DNA of 38,833 nt, from contig JACAEJ010000013.1 in NCBI GenBank assembly GCA_013388925.1, positions 1-38,833 on the forward strand, given 5' to 3'. Numbering within the stretch: position 1 is the first letter of the stretch; the number at the start of each line of letters is the position of its first letter. Made by a program: the position numbers and the translations under genes. This DNA is from Nitrososphaerales archaeon (lineage in GTDB: Archaea; Thermoproteota; Nitrososphaeria; Nitrososphaerales; JACAEJ01). This document shows, piece by piece, positions 146-35,664 of this stretch. A model generated the notes under the pieces. It was not told the DNA's origin and did not search any database. It saw only the letters and a list, made by a program, of their open reading frames with translations.

Positions 146-478
146 TCAGGGTTCTATTTTGCAAAGCTCTTTGATCTCGTCGAGTAACCTTCTTACTATT
201 TGAGGCTCTATCGGTGATAGAGTATGCAAAGAGGCTATTACCACACCATCGATCATCACGGATATGCTCTCAGCTAATATTCTTGAGTAGATATCCCCGA
301 ATCTGCTCGGGATGATAATGGTAGAATTCGCCCTGTCCCCCACCTTTACTGACAGAGCTATAGAACCAAACTTTGCCTCTTCTCCTTCAGAAACGGTCAA
401 GAAGCATCCATTCTTCGCTCTCAGCATATGGATATTGAATACTTTCTTATCTACCACTAACATCTTATTTGAAATCAA
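146..478 (-). CDS. Small protein resembling proteasome assembly chaperone PAC3 (tentative)
   Basis: A 110-residue protein, the last gene of the exosome-proteasome superoperon; its start overlaps the pcc1 stop by 4 nt, so translational coupling is likely. Seen in the sequence: an N-terminal beta region, then EAKFGSIALSV, then STIIIPSRFGD, a helix (YSRILAESISVMI), a strand (GVVIASLH) and a C-terminal helix ending in EIKELC. That order matches what I know of eukaryotic PAC3 (PSMG3): a Lys-Met/Phe-Gly turn, a T-x-x-LLG-like loop, a helix, then a hydrophobic strand and a final helix ending in Cys. Eukaryotic PAC3/PAC4 act on the alpha ring, and psmA starts this same superoperon. Identity is inferred by eye; the gene itself is secure. 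Confidence 0.5.
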   Translation of the reverse strand: MISNKMLVVDKKVFNIHMLRAKNGCFLTVSEGEEAKFGSIALSVKVGDRANSTIIIPSRFGDIYSRILAESISVMIDGVVIASLHTLSPIEPQIVRRLLDEIKELCKIEP

Positions 479-780
479 CTCTCATCCAACCTGATATTTT
501 GGATGGTTTTCGTTATCGCACCTATGATTCGTACATAGGAATTTGTCATTGCCCTTAATTGGGATATTTCTTTCCCCCTTAAATTCAGGACCAATTTGCC
601 TCTATCATGTGATATCTTGACGATAAAACGTGATCTTGGGGCTTTCTCTATTTCTGGCTTTAGAGCAAGATGGGCAATCTTTGCCAAGTCCTCTCCTAGG
701 CGGGCCTCTATTCTAGCTTCTAATCCCTTAATTGTAGATTCTTTCTTAAGAAGACTTAATCGGCGCTGGTGTGATATCAT
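475..780 (-). CDS. pcc1: KEOPS complex subunit Pcc1-like
   Basis: A protein of about 101 residues if started at ATG 780; a TTG at 795 would add five. Family features visible: an N-terminal region ending in a conserved Pro-Glu (ALKPEIEKAPRSR), two strands (RFIVKISHDRGKLVLNL), then the signature SQLRAMTNSYVRII, matching the L-R-A-x-x-N-S-Y/F motif of Pcc1. Pcc1 is the dimerisation subunit of KEOPS, which with Kae1 and Bud32 makes t6A37 in tRNA. It overlaps the end of the eL43 gene by 35 nt, and its stop overlaps the next start by 4 nt. The position after eL43 in the exosome superoperon is typical for archaea. Confidence 0.78.
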   Translation of the reverse strand: MISHQRRLSLLKKESTIKGLEARIEARLGEDLAKIAHLALKPEIEKAPRSRFIVKISHDRGKLVLNLRGKEISQLRAMTNSYVRIIGAITKTIQNIRLDES

Positions 781-979
781 AGGCTCTTCCCGCAATAACT
801 AAGCCGCATGACCTGCACCCCCACACGCCCTTGCCCTTTCTCTTTAAGTTCCATGAGCCACAACTAGGGCACTTCCTCTTTAGCTTTAAAGTGCTGTATA
901 CCCTACCGTACCTCTTTCTTAGCGTCGACCCATACTTGGCACCAAGCCCTCTTAAGCCCTTCTCCTTAGCCTTTGGCAT
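746..979 (-). CDS. rpl37ae: Large-subunit ribosomal protein eL43 (L37Ae)
   Basis: 77 residues, the usual archaeal length. The basic N-terminus ([20 protein letters not shown]) leads into a C4 zinc ribbon: CPSC near residue 37, then CRSC near residue 55, with the conserved GVWGC between. The protein binds 23S rRNA on the large subunit. Its start overlaps the 3' end of rrp42 by 14 nt, and the pcc1 frame begins inside its 3' end, so this is a tightly packed operon. Pairing of this gene with the exosome core is a conserved archaeal arrangement. Confidence 0.95.
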   Translation of the reverse strand: MPKAKEKGLRGLGAKYGSTLRKRYGRVYSTLKLKRKCPSCGSWNLKRKGKGVWGCRSCGLVIAGRAYDITPAPIKSS

Positions 980-1802
980 CTTTTGTAATGCCCCCTAGTA
1001 TGATTTTTCTAACCTCCCTGGCTTTGACTTTGGCGATGTTTGCTGCCAGCTTGACTTGGTCGAAGTTAAGGGTTCCAGGCTGACCTTTCTGCCCTGCACA
1101 TACGTTATCTTCTTCGTCAAATACCAAAGTTATTCTGGCATCCATGACTGCCTCCTCTTCAGAGGTTGGGTCCACTAACAACACATCACCTATCCTAGCC
1201 AAAGTAACAGAGACCGGGATGCTTTTTATTGGCAAGGGTATGATCTCTTCTGTCCGCTTTATCTGTCCATTCTGATCGACGAAGAGCTTCGGCATCTTCG
1301 CCGTAGCGATAGAAGCAACGGTAGCGTAGGACGTGGCATCGAATAAGTTACCGTCTACGTTTAAGACATTCACATCTACAAAGACGGCATGTACCTTCCT
1401 CCCAGGGATCAGTATGAGCTTTGAGAGGTCTATCATCTTGGATTCTCTTACGCCTCTATCCACGACCCTCGCTAGCTCTATGGCATCTTCATCTGGAGGA
1501 CCAGGTTCTGCGTAGGCTGAAGCCAGAGGCAAGACCTCTGCATTTACCACCAAAAGCCCCTTATCTGGGGTGTCTGGAAAGGGTTCTCCTGTCTCTATCT
1601 TTACGCCAGCTATAACTTGTGTATTACCAACTTGGACCTTGGCTGAGCCACTTGCCCTCTCTATGACTCCTGTCTCAATGACGATGTTCCGGAGATCCAG
1701 TAGGCCTCTGTTGTCTAGCCGTTTCTCTTTCGACAAAAGCTCCACCATCTGATCCTTTCTTAACCTTTCGACTACCATCGATCTTTTGACAGCTGACATC
1801 AT
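966..1802 (-). CDS. rrp42: Exosome complex component Rrp42
   Basis: 278 residues with the RNase PH fold. Visible features are [11 protein letters not shown] at the N-terminus, [18 protein letters not shown], and the Rrp42-type segment [17 protein letters not shown]. Rrp42 is the inactive partner that alternates with Rrp41 in the hexameric 3'-5' exoribonuclease and tailing ring; consistent with that, it lacks the acidic catalytic cluster seen in the adjacent Rrp41. Two ATG codons stand in tandem at 1802-1797, and the first overlaps the rrp41 stop (ATGA-type junction). Archaeal Rrp42 is normally about 270-275 residues, so the length fits. Confidence 0.95.
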
Positions 1803-2524
1803 TCCTCACCTGCTTCCCCTTTGCCAAAGTACTTATCGATCAGAGCTTCGCGCTGAACTTCATAGATCTGATGACAGGCGCTAACAGCCATATTGAAAGC
1901 CTTCTCAAATTCCTCAGGTGCCATTATGCCGTCTAGCTGAAAGAGGGTAACTTGGTTCAGGTTCGGCATGATGGCAATAGGCAAATCAGCATCTCCTTCT
2001 TTGTCTTCTGTATCGTCTAGATCGATGACGACCTGCCCAGATATCTTTCCAGCGGCGCAGGCCACAACCATATCACGCATAGATATTCCAGCATCGGCTA
2101 GAGCAACGGCAGAGGCCGTAATCCCAGCACACCTTGAACCCCCGTCTGCCTGTAGAACTTCCAGATAGATGTTTATTGCGGTCCTAGGGTACTCCTCAAG
2201 AATGAGGGCTGGTTCAAGGGCTTCTCTAATCACCTTTGATATCTCTATTTCACGCCTTGAAGGTTGTGGAGGCTTACGAACATCCACAGAGAAGGGAGCC
2301 ATATGGTAACGACACCTCAAGACAGACCTGTCTGGTAAAGCCAGATGTTTTGGATGGACTTCTTTTGGGCCATATACTGCAGCCACGATCTTATTCTTCC
2401 CCATCTCTATGTATGAAGAACCGTCGGCATTCTTGAGCACGCCAACCTCTATCCTCAAGGGTCTTAGCTCATCCACTCCTCTACCATCTATCCTCAAACC
2501 CTTCTCGTTTATCAATTCTACCAA
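1799..2524 (-). CDS. rrp41: Exosome complex exonuclease Rrp41
   Basis: 241 residues with the RNase PH fold; the catalytic subunit of the exosome ring. [18 protein letters not shown] is the N-terminal signature, [14 protein letters not shown] lies mid-protein, [18 protein letters not shown] carries the phosphate-binding region, and [17 protein letters not shown] holds the Asp cluster expected for metal and catalysis. It degrades RNA 3' to 5' with phosphate. The chosen start is TTG 2524, two bases after the rrp4 stop; no ATG lies closer and the family N-terminus begins here. The order rrp4-rrp41-rrp42 is the classical archaeal exosome operon. Confidence 0.96.
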
Positions 2525-2526
2525 AT

Positions 2527-3207
2527 TTATACCTCCCTCGACCCAGACAAAAGACTTTGAATATCTTTTACCAAACTAGCCAAGTGAGCTTCGGATTCGA
2601 CCATCCTAATGGCCTGTGTTGCCAGTAGGACACCATCAGGGGGCCCCACTATTAAAATGATTCCATTCTGACCTATAATGAGCCTACAATTGGTGGCAGA
2701 CTCTATGGTTTTTATCATAGATCCTTTCTTACCTATCAACCTAGGAACTTTAGCAGGACCTATCTTGACCATTTCCCCTTTTGGAATTTGCCCTAGACCA
2801 TGACCTGAAATGCTTAAAATAGGGTTCCTTGTTCTGTCGTAAGTTACAACCTTTGCGTAAATCAGATCTCCAATGGAAAATCTTTCTGGGAGGGATTCGC
2901 GATCTGGTGAAAAGTTTCTACCGAATACGCTTTGAGCCGGAAGATAGGCGAAGAAGCAGGAGTTGATGTCAACCTCCCATGAGAAAGCTGAATAGTCCAC
3001 GATCTTGCCTATAACAAGATCATCAACTTTAGGTATGTAGGGTCCAGATAAAGGGATAACGCGAATGCCCTCATGACTGATTTCAGCTAGCCCTATCTTT
3101 ATGGCATAGAAATTGTCTTTGACTTTAATCACGTTGCTGATGGGCTTATAATTCCCCGTGGCTATCAACTCGCCAGGGGTCACATACTTTCTTTTAACTT
3201 CAGACAT
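2527..3207 (-). CDS. rrp4: Exosome RNA-binding cap protein Rrp4
   Basis: 226 residues from ATG 3207; an alternative GTG at 3216 overlaps the SBDS stop as GTGA and would add three residues. The order of parts is typical: an N-terminal domain ([10 protein letters not shown]), an S1 domain ([19 protein letters not shown] with [10 protein letters not shown]), and a C-terminal KH domain containing [20 protein letters not shown], a G-K-K-G nucleic-acid loop. Rrp4 forms the cap that feeds RNA into the Rrp41/Rrp42 ring. A GTGAG stretch 5-9 nt upstream favours the ATG. The other cap protein, Csl4, is not in this window. Confidence 0.95.
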
Positions 3208-3212
3208 CTTTC

Positions 3213-3902
3213 TCACTTTACAATCATTGCCTGTGAAGTGCCCTTGGTGATCGAGCCCAACTTATCGATTAGTGAAGAATGGACTCCAGCAGGTATTTCC
3301 ACAATCGCATTTAGTGATCCGTCTGGTAGCCATTCTTCCTTTTGAATCTCTCCGTAACTTTTTAGGGTTCCTAAGGCTTTAGGAGCGAACTGGGGTTGAA
3401 TTTTCACCATGAGCCTTATCTTCTCATACTTTAATGGAAGAATGGTTCGTAACTTCTCCACAACATTCTTAGCCTGTTCTTCAGAATTCTTAAAGGGATC
3501 TATAGAAACATGGATTTGGGACATAGCCTGCTCAACTCTGATCTGAGGATGGGGTAAGCCTGTCCTAGGATCGACAAAACTCTTGCATATGATAGAGATT
3601 ATTTGCTTCTTTTTATCTTCGGTTAGTTCACGCCTCTGCTCAGTGGTAAGCTGAAGTTCCCCTCTAATTAGGATTGTCTTAGCGGCTTCTATTGTGGATG
3701 TTGTATTAAAGAACTTCTTCAACTTGTCTACAGGCACACGTAAGCCTTTTGAAGCGTCAGAGTATACTTCGTCTATGGCGATGATCTTCGATGAGTCGAC
3801 TGGACGTCCTAACTTGTGGTCTAAAGCTGTCTTGGGGTTGACGAGTATCTCGAACCGCTCTCCATCTACCACTAACCTGACGACAGTGAACTTACTACTC
3901 AA
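3213..3902 (-). CDS. sbds: Ribosome maturation protein SBDS homologue
   Basis: 229 residues with the three-domain plan of archaeal SBDS: the N-terminal FYSH domain (RLVVDGERFEILVNPKTALD, then IDEVYSDASKG), a helical middle domain with TTEQRRELTEDKKKQIISII and FVDPRTGLPHP (both SBDS signatures), and a ferredoxin-like C-terminal domain. In eukaryotes SBDS works with EFL1 to release eIF6 from the 60S subunit; archaeal SBDS is linked to 50S maturation. The start is TTG 3902, 21 nt after the psmA stop. SBDS sits between psmA and rrp4 in many archaea. Confidence 0.95.
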   Translation of the reverse strand: MSSKFTVVRLVVDGERFEILVNPKTALDHKLGRPVDSSKIIAIDEVYSDASKGLRVPVDKLKKFFNTTSTIEAAKTILIRGELQLTTEQRRELTEDKKKQIISIICKSFVDPRTGLPHPQIRVEQAMSQIHVSIDPFKNSEEQAKNVVEKLRTILPLKYEKIRLMVKIQPQFAPKALGTLKSYGEIQKEEWLPDGSLNAIVEIPAGVHSSLIDKLGSITKGTSQAMIVK

Positions 3903-3923
3903 AGTAAGAAAAGCACCAGTCTA

Positions 3924-4664
3924 CTAAGACTTACCAGTGGGAGATAGCCTCTCCTTTGATTTTTCTGCGTACTTAGCTATCTCTTCATCAGTGAGGCGTA
4001 TCATTCTTTTACTCTCTGTATCTAACAGAGCCATTTTTATGTGCTTAGTACCCACCTTGTCCTCACTTACCAAATATATACAATCTATGGCCAGTACGCA
4101 TGCATCTTCCAAATTCATATTAGGATTGAACCTTTTCTCCAAGTATTCCATTACTTGATCGCTTCCAGCCCCTATGGCAATCCCATCGTAACTGAGGTAT
4201 GTCCCACTCGGATCCGTCGAAAAGAGCATCGCCCCGTTCCTATCCACACCTGCCAAGATCAGAGAGACGCCGAAAGGTCTTACACCTGCGTATTGAGTGT
4301 ACTGCTGATTCAAATCCCCTATACGCTTGGCAACAGCTTCCACTTCTACGGGTTCATCGTATATCAACTTGTTCATCTGAGCGAAAACTCGTGAGTGATC
4401 TACTTGAACCCGGGCATCTGGAACATAACCAGCAGCTGCTATGCCTATGTGGTCATCGACCTGAAAGATCTTCTGACTTATATCTGGGTTCTGAAGCTTT
4501 CTAGTCCTCTCTTCAACAGCCAAGATCACACCATTCTTTACCCTCAAGCCCAAAGCCAAAGTTCCTCTTCTCACAGTCTCTATAGCATATTCGACTTGAT
4601 ACAATCTACCATCTGGCGAAAATATTGTAATCGCCCTATCGTATCCAGCGCTTGGAGCAAACAT
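3924..4664 (-). CDS. psmA: 20S proteasome alpha subunit
   Basis: 246 residues from ATG 4664; GTG 4670 is a less likely alternative because a GGTGAG sequence stands 5 nt before the ATG. The N-terminal alpha signature YDRAITIFSPDGRLYQVEYA is intact; this part forms the gate and H0 helix. GVILAVEERTRKL and RPFGVSLILAGVD follow in the usual places. There is no N-terminal Thr nucleophile, as expected for an alpha subunit. The ring of seven alpha subunits caps the beta rings and receives substrate from PAN or Cdc48. It is the first gene of the minus-strand superoperon. No beta subunit gene lies in the window. Confidence 0.97.
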   Translation of the reverse strand: MFAPSAGYDRAITIFSPDGRLYQVEYAIETVRRGTLALGLRVKNGVILAVEERTRKLQNPDISQKIFQVDDHIGIAAAGYVPDARVQVDHSRVFAQMNKLIYDEPVEVEAVAKRIGDLNQQYTQYAGVRPFGVSLILAGVDRNGAMLFSTDPSGTYLSYDGIAIGAGSDQVMEYLEKRFNPNMNLEDACVLAIDCIYLVSEDKVGTKHIKMALLDTESKRMIRLTDEEIAKYAEKSKERLSPTGKS

Positions 4665-4700
4665 AACCACTCACCTTACTACAATAGTCCTATACTAAGA

Positions 4701-12509: not shown

Positions 12510-12525
12510 ATGGAGGTCTATGATC

Positions 12526-13095
12526 ATGGGAGAGCCCATTACAAAGGATGAATCTATGATGGAAGTTGAGAAGGTTGATAAGCCTATAGAATTGATTAAA
12601 CTAGAAAATGAAATAGACGAATTAAAGAAGGCTCTGAAAGAGGAACATAATAGGGCAGAAGAATACTTGAACCGGTTGAAGTACCTCCAAGCCGATTTCG
12701 AAAACTTTCAGAAGAGGGTGAACAGAGAGATTTTCGATCTGGTAAAGTATGGTAATGAGAGGTTGATCGTAAAATTGTTAAGTGTTATCGACGATCTTGA
12801 AAGAGCCATAAAATCTGGCAAGGAGAGCGATGGTAAAGAGGCCCTTTTGAACGGTATTAGGATAGTCCTGAAGGAACTGATGGACATTCTTAAGAAGGAG
12901 GGGTTGGATCAGATAGATACTATTGGAAAGAGCTTTGATCCTAACCTGCATGAGGCGATAGAATATGTAGAAACGAAAGACTGCCCAGAAAACACGATAG
13001 TAGAAGAGATAAGAAAGGGTTATCTTCTAAATGAAAGGTTGATAAGACCGAGCATGGTCAAGGTGGCCATAAGGAAGGGTGAGGATAATGAGTAG
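12526..13095 (+). CDS. grpE: GrpE nucleotide exchange factor
   Basis: 189 residues from ATG 12526, chosen because GGAGGT at 12512-12517 has 8-nt spacing to it but only 2 nt to ATG 12520. A long N-terminal coiled coil (about residues 20-60) leads to [17 protein letters not shown] and the head domain, with [20 protein letters not shown] and a closing VRKGYLL-like segment ([20 protein letters not shown]). GrpE releases ADP from DnaK. It is the first gene of the operon and overlaps dnaK by 8 nt. Archaeal Hsp70 systems are widely held to have come from bacteria. Confidence 0.96.
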
Positions 13096-14953
13096 CTCTA
13101 AGGAGAAGATATTAGGAATAGACTTGGGAACCACGAATTCGGCAGCAGCGATCATGGAGGCTGGGAGGACGGTAGTCATACCCAGTGCTGAGGGCCCTAC
13201 CGTAGCGGGGAAGATGTTCCCTTCTGTAGTCGCCTTCACAAAGGATGGCCAATTGCTGGTCGGAGAGCCTGCCAAGAGGCAAGCCCTAACGAATCCCGAG
13301 GGCACCATTTTTGAGATCAAGAGGAAGATGGGAACCGACTACAAGGCTTTTGTTCATGATAAGGAGTTCACCCCTCAACAGGTATCTGCCTTTATCCTTC
13401 AGAAGATAAAGAGAGATGCAGAAACATACCTTGGGAGGACCTTGAGCAAGGTGGTGATAACCGCTCCGGCCCACTTCAACGATAATCAGAGGCAGGCTAC
13501 AAAAGATGCAGGGAGCATAGCCGGACTGGATGTAGTGAGGATAATAAACGAGCCTACAGCAGCGTGCCTTGCCTATGGTTTAGACAAGCTGGAGAAGGAA
13601 ATGAAGATAATGGTCTTCAGCTTTGGTGGAGGGACTCACGACGTAACCGTTATGGATTTTGGCGGAGGGGTCTTTCAGGTAATAGCAACTAGTGGGGACA
13701 CACAGACTGGAGGGGCAGACATAGACTATGCCATAGTTGGCCATCTTGTTGAAGAGTTCAGGAGGCAGACAGGAATGGATCTAAGAAACGACAAGACAGC
13801 CATGACAAGATTGAAGGAGGCCAGCGAGAAGGCCAAGATAGAGTTATCAAACCTTTTCACGACAGATATCGACTTGCCCTTCATAGCCATGGACAAAGAA
13901 GGGCCGAAGCACTTCCACCATACATTGACAAGAGCGAAGTTAGAAGAGCTTGCTCTGCCTATAGTCAAGAGGACGGAGAGCGCTATAAGGAGAGTATTGG
14001 AGGATGCAAAGCTCACTCCAAGGGATATTGATAAAGTGATATTGATAGGAGGGCAGACGAGGATGCCTTTAGTGAGAAGATTCATTGAAGAAGCAGTTGA
14101 CAAGCCCCCTGAGTTGGGAGTAGATCCCATGGAGTGCGTGGCCATAGGAGCTGCCATTCAGGGAGCCATAATAGCTGGGGAAGTGAAGGACATTCTCTTG
14201 CTCGACGTTACACCCCTGTCTTTGGGTGTGGAAACTTTGGGAGGAATATTCACAGGGATTATTGAGCGTAATACCACCATACCCACAAAGAGGAGCCAAG
14301 TCTTTACGACGGCTGCCGATTTTCAGACTACCGTTACCATTCACGTCCTACAAGGTGAGAGGCCTATGGCTAGTGACAACGTATCGTTGGGGATGTTCAA
14401 TCTTACTGGCATACCACCAGCGCCCAGAGGAGTTCCTCAGATAGAGGTAACCTTTGACATAGACGTTAACGGAATACTGCACGTAACTGCCAAGGACATG
14501 GCTACAGGGAAGGAACAGAAGATAACCATCACGGCGTCAAAGAAGCTGTCAAAAGATGAGATGAGACGAATGGTCGGCGAGGCCGAGAAGTTCGCCGAGC
14601 AGGACAGGATAAGGAGAGAAGAAGCCGAGCTTCGCAACTTCTCCGATAACTTGATCTACGTAGCTGAAAAGACAAAATCAGATCTTAAAGAGAAGCTGAA
14701 CCAAGACCAGATAAAGAAGATAGACGAATCTGTGAACGAATTGAAGGATGCCCTTGGAGGAAAAGATGTGGACAAGATAAAGGCAAAGAATGAGCAGCTA
14801 TCAAAGGTCCTGCAGGAGATAGGAGCTGCGGCATACCAGCAATCAGCTCAGCAGGCTCAAAGGCAGGAGGAGCAGGGCAAGGAGCAAAAAGAGGAGAAGA
14901 AGGATAAGGTAATCGATGCCGACTACGAAGTGGTGGATGATAAGGATAAGTAG
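13088..14953 (+). CDS. dnaK: Hsp70 chaperone DnaK with altered phosphate-2 loop
   Basis: 621 residues from ATG 13088, which follows GGTGAG; GTG 13079 would add three. The nucleotide-binding domain shows [10 protein letters not shown] (phosphate 1), IFEIKRKMG (catalytic Lys), [13 protein letters not shown] (hinge Glu) and [12 protein letters not shown] (adenosine). The substrate-binding part has [16 protein letters not shown] and a C-terminal helical lid rich in Gln and Lys ending in DADYEVVDD. Unusual: the phosphate-2 motif, DLGGGTFD in most Hsp70s, reads SFGGGTHD, so the conserved Asp (E. coli Asp194) is Ser178 here. The codon is AGC (13619-13621), two changes from an Asp codon. The downstream Asp and the phosphate-2 Thr are kept. 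Confidence 0.97.
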
Positions 14954-14981
14954 AATCGATCGCATCAAAAGTTGAATCTTC

Positions 14982-16076
14982 ATGTATGGGGATAAAAAGG
15001 ACTACTACGACGTTCTAGGCGTCCCAAGGAATGCGACTCAGGAGGAGATAAAGAGCGCCTATCGTAAACTGGCATTGCAATATCACCCAGACAGGAACAA
15101 ATCTCATGATGCGGAGGAGAAGTTCAAGGAGATATCTGAGGCCTACGCTGTTCTATCGGATGAGGAGAAACGCAGGCAGTACGATATGTTCGGCCATGCA
15201 GGCATAGGTAGCAGATATACAAGAGAGGACATATTCAAAGGGGTCGACTTTGATGAAATCTTCAGGGATCTGGGCTTCGGTGGCTTCGATAGTATCTTTG
15301 ACATGTTCTTTGGGAGACGTAGGGAGCGCTATGGCCCAGAGAAGGGGGATGATCTGAGGTACGATCTTGAAATCACCCTTGAAGATGCCTTTAGGGGTCT
15401 AAATACGGAGATAGAAATCCCCCGAAACGAGGAGTGTAATGTGTGCAAAGGGACAGGAGCAAGGCCAGGGACAGGGCCAAAGACGTGTCTAAAATGTCAT
15501 GGTACGGGGCAGGTGCAGTACTCCCGCATGTCTGGTTTTACTAGATTCGTTCAGATAACTACTTGTGATAGGTGTAATGGTAGGGGGGTGGTACTAGAGA
15601 GTCCATGTAAGGAGTGCCATGGCACTGGCATAGTGAAGCACTACAGAAAGATAAGGATAGATGTGCCACGTGGAGTGGATACGGGCCACAGCCTAAGGCT
15701 GAGGGGGGAGGGCGAAGTAGGTGCAAGAAGAGGGCCAGCTGGCGATCTGTATATAGTAATAGGCATAAAGCCTCACAAGGTCTTTAAGAGAGAGGGAAAC
15801 GACATATTCTGTGATGCTATTATGGGCTTCCCTCAGGCAACCTTAGGATCTGAGATAGAGGTGCCAACCTTGGATGGGAAGGCCAAACTAAGGATACCTC
15901 CAGGTACTCAGACCGGGACTATATTCAGACTGAAGGGGAGGGGCATGCCAAAGATGAGAGGGTTTGGTAGAGGGGATGAAATGGTGAGAGTTATTTTAAG
16001 GACTCCAACAAACCTGACGGAGAAGCAGAGAAGGCTCCTTTTGGATTTGGCCAAGGAGTTTGGAGAAAGCAGTTGA
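14982..16076 (+). CDS. dnaJ: Hsp40 co-chaperone DnaJ
   Basis: 364 residues, class I. The J domain (residues 1-75) contains [20 protein letters not shown] and the HPD triad in YHPDRN. A short Gly/Phe region with [13 protein letters not shown] follows. Four zinc-finger repeats are present: [24 protein letters not shown] and CKECHGTG. The C-terminal domains contain [19 protein letters not shown] and [19 protein letters not shown]. It delivers substrates and stimulates DnaK ATP hydrolysis. It lies 28 nt after dnaK, completing the bacterial-type order grpE-dnaK-dnaJ. Because HPD is intact, normal coupling to DnaK is expected in spite of the changed DnaK loop. Confidence 0.97.
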
Positions 16077-16121: not shown

Positions 16122-16387
16122 ATGTACAAGTTCAACATAACGAAGCAGACGAGAAGCTTCACTGACAAGGGTGGCAAAAAATTTAGCTGTGGTACCTGTC
16201 TAAGGATTGCCATTTGGAGGGTTCGGAGATGTGCCTGATCTTGACATTGGAAGATTTGTACAGGATAGTAAAGGAGAGCGACAGAATCGTCTTTTTTAGA
16301 AGCAAGCTTGAAATCAATCTGATCGTTGAATGCAATCCACGATCATTAATTGATTTTCCACCAAGTTTGGATGCGTGCCGGCCGTAG
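16122..16387 (+). other. Gap after dnaJ with two overlapping possible small ORFs
   Basis: Between dnaJ and the RNase P RNA gene no clear gene is seen. Two short frames overlap: 16122-16238 (38 residues, with a CGTC pair) and 16229-16387 (52 residues). The second has GGAGGG about 8 nt before its ATG and encodes an amphipathic LTLEDLYRIVKESDRIVFF. Its 3' end would run 18 nt into the RNase P RNA gene on the other strand. Neither is recognised. They may be one frameshifted gene, a pair of small genes, or chance. Confidence 0.2.
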
Positions 16388-16660
16388 CCCTCTTTCTGTT
16401 CTAGGCGGGATTAGACTAAGCGGCCTACCCGGGTCTCGTGCAGAGCTCATAGACCTCTTTTTGGCCTTGCTCCGCGAGGGGCAACCGTTTCACTCCTACC
16501 CAGGAACCTCAGGCACTCCATCATAGTACGCCCTGGTTCGGATGTCGTTTCTGTTTTGTTGCCAGCCATCTCTGGCTGTGCCTCACGGCACCTCGCCCCT
16601 GCAAGGAGAGAGGAGCTTCCTCAGGGCATAGCCCCGTGGCCCGCCCACCGACTCGCACCC
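16370..16660 (-). ncRNA. rnpB: RNase P RNA (archaeal type)
   Basis: Read on the minus strand, the universal RNase P core is in order: GAGGAAGCTCC (CR-I), ACAGAAACGAC (CR-II/III), GAGTGAAACGGT then GGAGCAAGGCCAAA (CR-IV), GACCCGGGTAGGCCGCTTA and finally AACAGAAAGAGGGCTA (CR-V). P1 pairs GGTGCGAGTCGG (16659-16648) with CCGGCACGCATC (16381-16370) with one mismatch. P2 pairs GGGCGGG with CCCGCCT. A GGGC-TAT-GCCC hairpin makes P3. P18 is absent, as usual in archaea. The RNA is the catalytic subunit that removes tRNA 5' leaders. It lies between dnaJ and pyrF; ends are set from P1 and may be off by a few bases. Confidence 0.95.
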
Positions 16661-34628: not shown

Positions 34629-34729
34629 AAATCAACCATCATCCTCCCACCTCTAAAATGCTTCCGCAACACCCAAATACTCTATGATTCTGTGACCGTA
34701 TGTCAGAAGTTAGATATCGCGGTGAGATT

Positions 34730-35041
34730 ATGCCGAGGTCCAAGGGTTTTAGGCGTAGAACAAGGAGCCTACTGATCAGAAGAGGAAGCAAGGGCTTGAC
34801 ACCTCTCCTTCACGAGTATAAGGTCAAGGATAAAGTTGTGATAAACATAGATTCAAGTCAGGTCAAGGGCATGCCCCATAGACGTTATCAGGGTCTTGTC
34901 GGTATCGTAGAAGAAGTTAGAAGAAGGTCTCTCATGATAGAGGTGCCAGTAGGAGGAAAGATAAAGAGGATAATAGCGAGGTTTGAGCATATAAAGCCAC
35001 ATGCCGAGGGGCTTCGATCTGAACAAGCCATCGAGAGGTAA
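34730..35041 (+). CDS. rpl21e: Large-subunit ribosomal protein eL21
   Basis: 103 residues from ATG 34730, which has GGTGAG shortly before it and gives the family N-terminus MPRSKGFRRRTRSLL. An earlier ATG at 34700 would add ten residues outside the family. KVKDKVVINIDSSQVKGMPH and RRYQGLVGIVEEVRRR are the conserved SH3-like core. Archaeal eL21 is about 95-105 residues. eL21 and rpoF stand next to each other in many archaea. Confidence 0.93.
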   Translation: MPRSKGFRRRTRSLLIRRGSKGLTPLLHEYKVKDKVVINIDSSQVKGMPHRRYQGLVGIVEEVRRRSLMIEVPVGGKIKRIIARFEHIKPHAEGLRSEQAIER

Positions 35042-35090
35042 AAATTTAAAATAAAGCCAAAATATTGTAAAGATTTTGTGGTGGTTTTGG

Positions 35091-35408
35091 TTGCCTAAAG
35101 GTAAAAGGACGGTTATCTCCATACCTGAAGCCAAAGAGATATTGGGGAAGATAGATGTAGAGAAGGCAGACCAGATACAGAAAAGGACTATAGACTACGT
35201 TGCAAAGTTCTCCAAGACTACGCCTGAAAGGGCGAGGGAGATGAGGGAGAGACTAATCATGGAGTGCTCTTTGACCGATGAAGAGGCCACAGAGTTGATC
35301 AACATAATGCCCAAGAGTATGGAGGAGATAAGGGTCTTCACTTCTGGCTGGAAGAAGCTCCTGCCTACAGAAGTTGTGAAAAAGATTATTGGAATTCTCA
35401 AATTCTAA
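35091..35408 (+). CDS. rpoF: RNA polymerase subunit F (Rpb4)
   Basis: 105 residues from TTG 35091, which has GGTGGT about 5-8 nt before it; TTG 35076 would add five residues with three Trp that do not match the family. ISIPEAKEILGKI, ATELINIMPKSMEEIRVF and LPTEVVKKIIGIL correspond to the helices by which Rpb4 binds Rpb7 in the polymerase stalk. The stalk partner RpoE (Rpb7) is not in the window. It follows eL21 by about 50 nt and precedes the tRNA-Gln gene. Confidence 0.9.
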   Translation: MPKGKRTVISIPEAKEILGKIDVEKADQIQKRTIDYVAKFSKTTPERAREMRERLIMECSLTDEEATELINIMPKSMEEIRVFTSGWKKLLPTEVVKKIIGILKF

Positions 35409-35462: not shown

Positions 35463-35472
35463 GTTTTTAAAT
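35463..35472 (+). promoter_or_regulatory. TATA box for the tRNA-Gln gene
   Basis: GTTTTTAAAT preceded by AATAA. A transcription start about 25 nt on, near 35492, would leave a leader of about 12 nt before mature position 1 at 35505, a usual length for archaeal tRNA genes. Confidence 0.5.
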
Positions 35473-35504
35473 GAAAAGTGGAGAATGAATCCTAGCCCGG
35501 AAAG

Positions 35505-35633
35505 AGCCCGGTGGAGAGAGCCAGCCGAGTGTAGCGGTCAAGCAAGAAGTCTCTACTTCCTTGAGTAGCGGGCTTTGGAGGAATATCCCGAAGCCACCCG
35601 CTGACGCCAGTTCGAATCTGGCCCGGGCTACCA
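35505..35633 (+). tRNA. tRNA-Gln(UUG) with three introns and encoded CCA
   Basis: The exons are 35505-35514, 35530-35544, 35566-35578 and 35596-35630, making 73 nt, then CCA 35631-35633. Acceptor: AGCCCGG with CCGGGCT, discriminator A. D arm: TGT AGCGGTCAA GCA. Anticodon arm: GCGGG-CTTTGGA-CCCGC, anticodon TTG. T arm: GCCAG-TTCGAAT-CTGGC. Intron 1 (15 nt, 35515-35529) lies between positions 10 and 11. Intron 2 (21 nt, 35545-35565) lies between 24 and 25. Intron 3 (17 nt, 35579-35595) is at the common site 37/38. Each has a 4-bp central helix flanked by two 3-nt bulges, with cuts after the second bulge base; intron 1 has a weak outer helix. Confidence 0.92.
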
Positions 35634-35664
35634 TGAATTTTAGTCAGAACGACGTTAGTACATG

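What the first reader, a model, noticed from the sequence alone, without database searches (positions are those of the whole stretch)
35505..35633. tRNA-Gln(UUG) interrupted by three bulge-helix-bulge introns
Removing 15, 21 and 17 nt at positions 10/11, 24/25 and 37/38 restores a perfect 73-nt tRNA with all arms paired. Each intron has a 4-bp helix between two 3-nt bulges: 35509-35512 with 35524-35527, 35539-35542 with 35560-35563, 35573-35576 with 35590-35593. Multi-intron tRNAs are known chiefly from Thermoproteales and a few other archaea. Two of the three sites are non-canonical, which implies a broad-specificity (heteromeric) splicing endonuclease. Introns of 15-21 nt are near the minimum, and all lie within the first half of the molecule.
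Basis: partly seen in the sequence, partly recalled or inferred. Interest (0 to 1): 0.75.

Follow-up and report, generated by a model that had tools for sequence, protein, structure and literature searches.

The report
Triple-intron tRNA with decoy leader strand
This archaeal glutamine-tRNA gene is cut by three tiny introns, which is a known kind of thing; but the short stretch just before it carries a second copy of the tRNA's first seven letters, and across Thermoproteota archaea that copy is present wherever the first intron is found, which suggests an unrecognised folding aid that lets the splicing enzyme reach an intron hidden beside the tRNA's main stem.

Summary
Window 35505-35633 (+) encodes tRNA-Gln(UUG) interrupted by 15-, 21- and 17-nt BHB introns at 10/11, 24/25 and 37/38. 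Relatives carry the joined exons uninterrupted at two of the three sites, and carry different introns at exactly the same sites. Multi-intron tRNAs are already known, so this part is a new member of a known kind.

The leader holds a second copy of the acceptor 5' strand (AGCCCGG, 35494-35500). All ~100 genes found with a 10/11 intron (77 distinct leaders) have such a copy, pairing 6-7 bp with the acceptor 3' strand. Only 6 of 78 Gln genes without that intron do. The copy follows acceptor changes, lies near the predicted transcription start, and recurs in a tRNA-Pro. Folding predicts it frees nucleotides 5-8 for the intron's BHB helix (probability 0.55 with it, 0.07 without). Best reading: a surrogate acceptor strand enabling splicing before RNase P. 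The return strand exchange is inferred, not shown.

The parts
35466..35471 (+). TATA-like box TTTAAA; predicted transcription start about 28 nt downstream, i.e. at or near the leader copy
   Evidence: Read directly. TATA-to-copy distance is 28 nt here and 28-33 in most intron-1 genes; TATA-to-tRNA distance in ordinary tRNAs is most often 28-33. Inference from spacing, no RNA data.
35494..35500 (+). Leader copy AGCCCGG of the acceptor 5' strand (surrogate strand), able to pair with 35623-35629; T35493 can extend the pairing to A35630
   Evidence: Exact 7-nt repeat of 35505-35511. MFE of 35485-35640 pairs it with the 3' strand. Co-occurs with the 10/11 intron in all genes examined.
35501..35504 (+). 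Spacer AAAG between the leader copy and mature nucleotide 1
   Evidence: spacer is 0-13 nt and unconserved in relatives.
35505..35514 (+). Exon 1, tRNA-Gln nt 1-10 (acceptor 5' strand 35505-35511)
   Evidence: Contiguous with exon 2 in relatives lacking intron 1.
35515..35529 (+). Intron 1, 15 nt, site 10/11; BHB helix 35509-35512 (nt 5-8, CGGT) with 35524-35527 (GCCG)
   Evidence: exon CCGT/intron GCGG replaces CGGT/GCCG where the acceptor is AGCCCCG.
35530..35544 (+). Exon 2, nt 11-24
35545..35565 (+). Intron 2, 21 nt, site 24/25; BHB helix 35539-35542 (CAAG) with 35560-35563 (CTTG); inner helix GAAGT/ACTTC
35566..35578 (+). Exon 3, nt 25-37, includes anticodon TTG 35575-35577
   Evidence: ARAGORN on spliced form.
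35579..35595 (+). Intron 3, 17 nt, canonical site 37/38; BHB helix 35573-35576 (CTTT) with 35590-35593 (GAAG)
35596..35633 (+). Exon 4, nt 38-73 plus encoded CCA (35631-35633); acceptor 3' strand 35623-35629 is the partner of both the true 5' strand and the leader copy
16373..16656 (-). Archaeal RNase P RNA (RF00373), the expected leader-removing enzyme component; a trans factor, elsewhere in the window
   Evidence: Rfam match 221 bits, E 6.8e-65.

Best explanation
The locus is the genome's only detected tRNA-Gln(UUG) gene. Its precursor has three BHB introns (10/11, 24/25, 37/38) cut out by an (alpha beta)2-type splicing endonuclease, and it begins with a second copy of the acceptor 5' strand. 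Intron 1 is special because its BHB central helix is built from nt 5-8, so it cannot form while nt 1-7 are paired in the acceptor stem. The leader copy (35494-35500) acts as a surrogate 5' strand: it pairs with the acceptor 3' strand (35623-35629), closes the tRNA body, and leaves the true 5' strand free to form the intron-1 BHB. After intron 1 is removed, the true strand is proposed to replace the copy, and RNase P cleavage at nt 1 then removes the leader and makes the exchange irreversible. Shown here by computation: the gene, its introns and splice registers, the strict co-occurrence of intron 1 and leader copy, co-variation of the copy with the acceptor, promoter spacing, and the predicted effect of the copy on BHB-1 pairing. 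Inferred: transcription from the copy, splicing in the cell, the strand exchange, and RNase P as the final step.
For: Gene and introns; no other Gln(UUG) gene found; two EndA subunits; RNase P RNA. Coupling: in 85 Gln genes of the order, intron+copy 43, intron only 0, copy only 4, neither 38 (Fisher p 5e-20; at family x isoacceptor level 17:0 against 4:11, p 1e-5). Tests after the rule was formed: 5/5 genes in families f40/f68 outside the order, against 2 weak among 36 intronless genes; 50/50 hits of a pattern blind to the leader; 20/20 real tRNAs in a phylum-wide pattern search, while the one non-tRNA hit had none. Pooled: 77 distinct leaders, all >=6 bp, spacer 0-13 nt. The copy follows acceptor changes: AGCCCCG genes have an AGCCCCG copy, and a tRNA-Pro-like gene in f26 (L347/L356) has GGACCGG, the exact complement of its own 3' strand CCGGTCC. 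Gain/loss contrasts inside families: f1 G000/G005 have both, G001-G004/G006 neither; also f2 CTG, f10 TTG, f17 TTG. Promoter spacing fits the copy (median 30 nt) rather than the gene (40 nt). Folding of 42 genes: P(BHB1) 0.55 native, 0.07 with the copy replaced; true acceptor stem 0.16 against 0.93 (Wilcoxon 4.5e-13). Other tRNAs with introns elsewhere: 3 of 37 loci reach 6 bp.
Against: No RNA data: transcription start, splicing and cleavage order are untested. In the folding model the copy stays paired even after all introns are removed (true acceptor 0.16, copy 0.81), so the return exchange is not explained by nearest-neighbour energies alone. For f8 CTG genes P(BHB1) stays near 0 with or without the copy. 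Exceptions: copy without a 10/11 intron in L162 (f11) and, 18-26 nt upstream, in f4 Gln(CUG) genes. Genes are related, so counts are not independent events. Some copies are 6 bp with a G.U (AGCTCG in f8 CTG). A promoter match was clear in only 23 of the 43 intron-1 genes.
Confidence: 0.62

Rival explanations
1. The leader copy serves mainly to set the processing order: by occupying the acceptor 3' strand it hides the RNase P site until splicing is done. Making room for the intron-1 BHB is secondary.
For: Same anatomy; the copy is predicted to suppress the true acceptor stem almost completely (0.16 against 0.93). Leader pairing that disturbs RNase P recognition is known in bacteria, though there through 3' RCCA pairing (abstract of PMC9433436).
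Against: Precursors with introns only at other sites, including 37/38 and 24/25, also need order but have no copy. The coupling is specific to the site whose BHB uses acceptor nucleotides.
Confidence: 0.16
2. The copy is a passive relic of the event that inserted intron 1 (a local duplication) and has no function.
For: Copy and intron 1 occur together; L162 and f4 CUG genes have a copy without the intron.
Against: The 7-nt copy is kept while the spacer varies 0-13 nt in length and sequence; it follows later acceptor changes and can match the 3' strand better than the true strand does (Pro gene); the promoter is spaced to it; it is absent in f1 relatives lacking the intron.
Confidence: 0.1
3. 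The upstream copy is the real exon 1, and a fourth processing event removes the spacer plus the second copy.
For: The two copies are identical here, so the mature sequence would be the same.
Against: Because the two strands are identical, the exon and intron windows of any such cut would have to pair with their own copy, so no BHB can form (by inspection); the removed piece would be only 7-20 nt; some copies differ from the conserved acceptor (AGCTCG, GGCCCGG, GTCCGG) and would give altered mature tRNAs.
Confidence: 0.04
4. The heptamer is a promoter or initiator element rather than an RNA-pairing element.
For: It lies at the predicted transcription start.
Against: It is absent from other tRNA genes of the same genomes, varies with the acceptor sequence and not with the lineage, and tracks an intron downstream.
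Confidence: 0.03
5. The gene is a decayed pseudogene or assembly artefact with chance inserts.
For: Standard finders miss it.
Against: Exons are unchanged against relatives; introns sit at identical sites in many genomes with variable sequences; no alternative Gln(UUG) gene was found.
Confidence: 0.01

Closest known systems
Multiple-intron archaeal pre-tRNAs (Thermoproteales; also Thaumarchaeota and Caldiarchaeum)
   Same: Up to three short BHB introns at 37/38 and non-canonical sites in one tRNA, with mosaic presence in relatives (PMC8450103, PMC4033280, PMC3293823).
   Different: A transcribed-leader copy of the acceptor 5' strand goes with the 10/11 intron; the papers read or searched do not mention it.
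Split (trans-spliced) archaeal tRNAs
   Same: Leader sequences pair with another part of the precursor to build a BHB-competent fold (PMC3293823, PMC4033280).
   Different: Here one transcript; the leader pairs with the exon acceptor 3' strand, not with a trailer or intron, and so sets up the BHB indirectly.
Circularly permuted tRNAs (Thermofilum, Cyanidioschyzon)
   Same: BHB splicing in an unusual precursor topology, found partly by unusual promoter-to-tRNA spacing (PMC3218864).
   Different: Gene order is normal; the displaced promoter reflects an added strand, not a permutation.
Riboregulators and attenuators using mutually exclusive helices
   Same: Two strands compete for one complementary strand, so the RNA can switch fold (general knowledge).
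   Different: No ligand or gene-regulatory output; the competing strand would be a processing aid inside a tRNA precursor.

Membership tests
Archaeal BHB-intron tRNA | Intron removal restores a full tRNA cloverleaf with identifiable anticodon | tested here: met
   ARAGORN calls the spliced sequence tRNA-Gln(ttg); unspliced not found.
Archaeal BHB-intron tRNA | 4-bp central helix between 3-nt bulges with cuts after the second bulge nucleotide | tested here: met
   4/4 pairs at all three sites in register. The outer helix of the intron-1 motif is weak or absent, so it is at best a relaxed BHB.
Archaeal BHB-intron tRNA | Splicing endonuclease present | tested here: met
   Two PF01974 genes; alpha matches 3p1z_B E 1.1e-39; beta-like subunit E 1.3e-27 to EndA 5x89.
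Archaeal BHB-intron tRNA | Introns actually removed in cells | not testable with these tools
   No RNA data.
(alpha beta)2-type EndA with broad specificity | Catalytic alpha with Tyr/His/Lys and structural beta lacking them | tested here: met
   alpha ...VYEHGPGIDHAP...VRKQ...; beta ...VYDRGDYGSKSAK... without His. Assembly as a heterotetramer not tested.
Split or permuted tRNA | tRNA halves encoded apart or in reversed order | tested here: not met
   All four exons lie in order on one strand within 129 nt.
Leader-copy class (proposed here) | 10/11 intron plus leader strand pairing >=6 bp with the acceptor 3' strand within about 14 nt of nt 1 | tested here: met
   Window: 7 bp, 4-nt spacer; 77/77 distinct leaders elsewhere.
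Leader-copy class (proposed here) | Copy needed for splicing of intron 1 | not testable with these tools
   Only thermodynamic prediction.

The most novel reading that the evidence does not exclude
A conserved cis-acting RNA switch in tRNA precursors: where an intron's BHB motif is built from acceptor-stem nucleotides, the precursor carries a transcribed surrogate acceptor strand in its leader. This strand holds the tRNA body together during splicing and is then exchanged for the true strand before RNase P cleavage. It is widespread in Thermoproteota (>20 families) and not restricted to tRNA-Gln.
Probability: 0.6. Interest if true: 0.75.

Novelty: new variant of a known kind. Interest (0 to 1): 0.62.

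Why it matters
A standing puzzle of archaeal tRNA introns is how an endonuclease that reads local BHB structure can remove introns whose BHB would break an essential tRNA stem. The leader copy offers a concrete, testable answer: the precursor brings a spare strand. It makes predictions about transcription start, splicing order and RNase P timing that can be tested with short synthetic RNAs. It also gives gene finders a new cue (a repeat of the acceptor strand upstream of a low-scoring tRNA), and shows that tRNA leaders, usually treated as waste, can be conserved parts of the maturation machinery.

Tried and rejected
Named relatives via rpl21e synteny gave the lineage (Nitrososphaeria and relatives), but none of those flanks held the tRNA. 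Searched for the same 10/11 intron in tRNA-Glu-like genes of 300 genomes: none. Searched f26 genomes for more such tRNAs: only the Pro-like gene; the two other hits are not tRNAs by inspection. Tested whether the strand exchange follows from folding energies alone: it does not. Considered and rejected: upstream copy as true exon 1 (no BHB possible, variants), pseudogene, promoter element. The low Rfam hits ceN63 and Vax2os1 are below their cut-offs and taken as chance. One search parsed two genes (L181, L184) with a misregistered intron 1, which lowers the native mean slightly. Literature searches found no description of a leader copy of the acceptor strand, but subscription papers (e.g. Sugahara 2008) are not in the library.

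Full report
1. What is there. The sequence at 35505-35633 (+) is a tRNA-Gln(UUG) gene with four exons and three introns of 15, 21 and 17 nt. Joining the exons gives AGCCCGGTGGTGTAGCGGTCAAGCATAGCGGGCTTTGGACCCGCTGACGCCAGTTCGAATCTGGCCCGGGCTACCA, which ARAGORN calls tRNA-Gln(ttg); the unspliced gene is invisible to it and below the Rfam cut-off. Each intron has the four-pair central helix in the register that puts both cuts after the second bulge nucleotide.

2. Is it real? Yes. The gene was compared with about 90 tRNA-Gln genes of the same order. Inside its own family, G002 has exons 1-3 contiguous and identical (38/38) with only intron 3, G004 and G006 likewise lack introns 1 and 2, G001 and G003 lack intron 1, and G005 has all three at the same sites with different sequences. 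The exon sequence is therefore a functional tRNA and the insertions are introns at fixed sites. No second Gln(UUG) gene was found in the 94%-complete genome; the Gln(CUG) gene at G000:C28 also appears to carry three introns. Flanking loci point to Nitrososphaeria. Multi-intron tRNAs, up to three introns and including Thaumarchaeota, are known (PMC8450103, PMC4033280, PMC3293823). To this point the finding is a new member of a known kind.

3. Eleven nucleotides upstream lies a second AGCCCGG (35494-35500), an exact copy of the acceptor 5' strand, so it can pair with the acceptor 3' strand CCGGGCT (35623-35629). In 85 parsed Gln genes of the order, all 43 with an intron at 10/11 have such a leader strand (>=6 contiguous pairs within 14 nt of nt 1), and only 4 of 42 without that intron do. 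Collapsed to family x isoacceptor units, this is 17:0 against 4:11. Contrasts occur inside families: f1 (G000, G005 with both; five relatives with neither), f2 CUG, f10 UUG and f17 UUG.

4. Tests made after the rule was stated. (a) Families outside the order, f40 and f68: 5/5 genes with a 10/11 intron have the copy; among 36 intronless genes two weak matches. (b) A pattern describing only the intron-1 splice region, blind to the leader, was run over 400 genomes of the order: all 50 loci read have the copy, including f8 and f10. (c) The same pattern over 398 genomes of the phylum: 20/20 real tRNAs have the copy; the single non-tRNA hit does not. (d) One of these is a tRNA-Pro-like gene in f26 (GGGCCGG...CCGGTCC). 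Its leader has GGACCGG, the exact complement of its own 3' strand. After removing identical leaders, 77 of 77 carry 6 (30) or 7 (47) pairs, with spacers of 0-13 nt. Counting by place, the sets in (a)-(c) and section 3 overlap partly and amount to roughly 100 genes. Controls: 37 loci for other tRNAs, mostly with introns elsewhere, from four genomes reach 6 pairs in 3 cases.

5. Reasons to think it is functional. The copy follows the acceptor: genes with AGCCCCG acceptors (f14) have AGCCCCG copies, and G077 has a different matching copy in each of its two Gln genes. The intron side of the BHB helix also co-varies (CGGT/GCCG, ACCG or ATCG against CCGT/GCGG). The spacer is not conserved. The TATA box is placed about 30 nt from the copy, the distance at which other tRNA genes place it from the tRNA itself, so the copy is predicted to be at or near the first transcribed nucleotide; a clear TATA match was found in 23 of the 43 intron-1 genes.

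6. How it probably works. Intron 1 is the only one of the three whose BHB central helix is made of acceptor-stem nucleotides (nt 5-8). In a nearest-neighbour model of 42 precursors, that helix has mean probability 0.55 with the native leader and 0.07 when the copy is replaced, while the true acceptor stem goes from 0.16 to 0.93. For the window the figures are 0.81 and 0.00. So the copy can act as a stand-in for the acceptor strand while the real one is in use for splicing. After intron-1 removal the real strand must take over; RNase P (RNA gene at 16373-16656) would then cut at nt 1. The model does not predict this return by itself; tertiary folding, modification, or the irreversible RNase P cut would have to drive it. 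This step is inferred.

7. Limits. There are no RNA data. Genes are related, so p-values overstate independence; the family-level contrast and the out-of-group tests are the better evidence. Four f4 Gln(CUG) genes and L162 have a copy without a 10/11 intron and remain unexplained. The literature library lacks most subscription papers; nine searches found no mention of the element.

8. Verdict. Three-intron tRNA: confirmed, known kind. Leader copy of the acceptor strand coupled to the 10/11 intron: strongly supported as a conserved association, moderately supported as a surrogate-strand mechanism, apparently undescribed.

Noticed in passing
G000:C28:11674-11793 (L143, 225-344): The genome's tRNA-Gln(CUG) gene also appears to carry three introns (16, 13 and 15 nt by alignment), on the same contig as the catalytic EndA subunit gene.
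   Followed up: partly
L149, L050, L052, L150 (f4 tRNA-Gln CUG genes): These genes have AGCCCG(G) 18-26 nt upstream of the tRNA, about 29 nt from the TATA box in three of the four, but no 10/11 intron; in two of them the leader also holds GAGGGCT, complementary to the true acceptor strand. Possibly another way to sequester it.
   Followed up: partly
L162 (G039, f11): tRNA-Gln(CUG) with leader AGCCCGG 1 nt upstream but no 10/11 intron; possibly a recent intron loss.
   Followed up: no
L218 (G008:C26, tRNA-Arg): A D-loop insertion of about 40 nt ends with a copy of the D-arm 5' strand (TAGCCTAG), which may be a second kind of surrogate strand, inside an intron.
   Followed up: no
G000, 31 RF00005 matches: Many tRNA genes of this genome are 85-115 nt long and carry introns, so the tRNA set is intron-rich as a whole.
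   Followed up: partly
window 16373-16656 (-): Complete archaeal RNase P RNA gene, 221 bits.
   Followed up: no
window 12520-16076 (+): GrpE-DnaK-DnaJ-like gene cluster (identified by eye from translations).
   Followed up: no
window 146-4670 (-): Exosome-like (Rrp42/Rrp41/Rrp4), SBDS-like and proteasome-alpha-like genes in a row (identified by eye).
   Followed up: no
window 34700-35408 (+): rpl21e-like and Rpb4-like genes directly upstream of the tRNA; the tRNA was not found next to rpl21e in the named relatives searched.
   Followed up: partly
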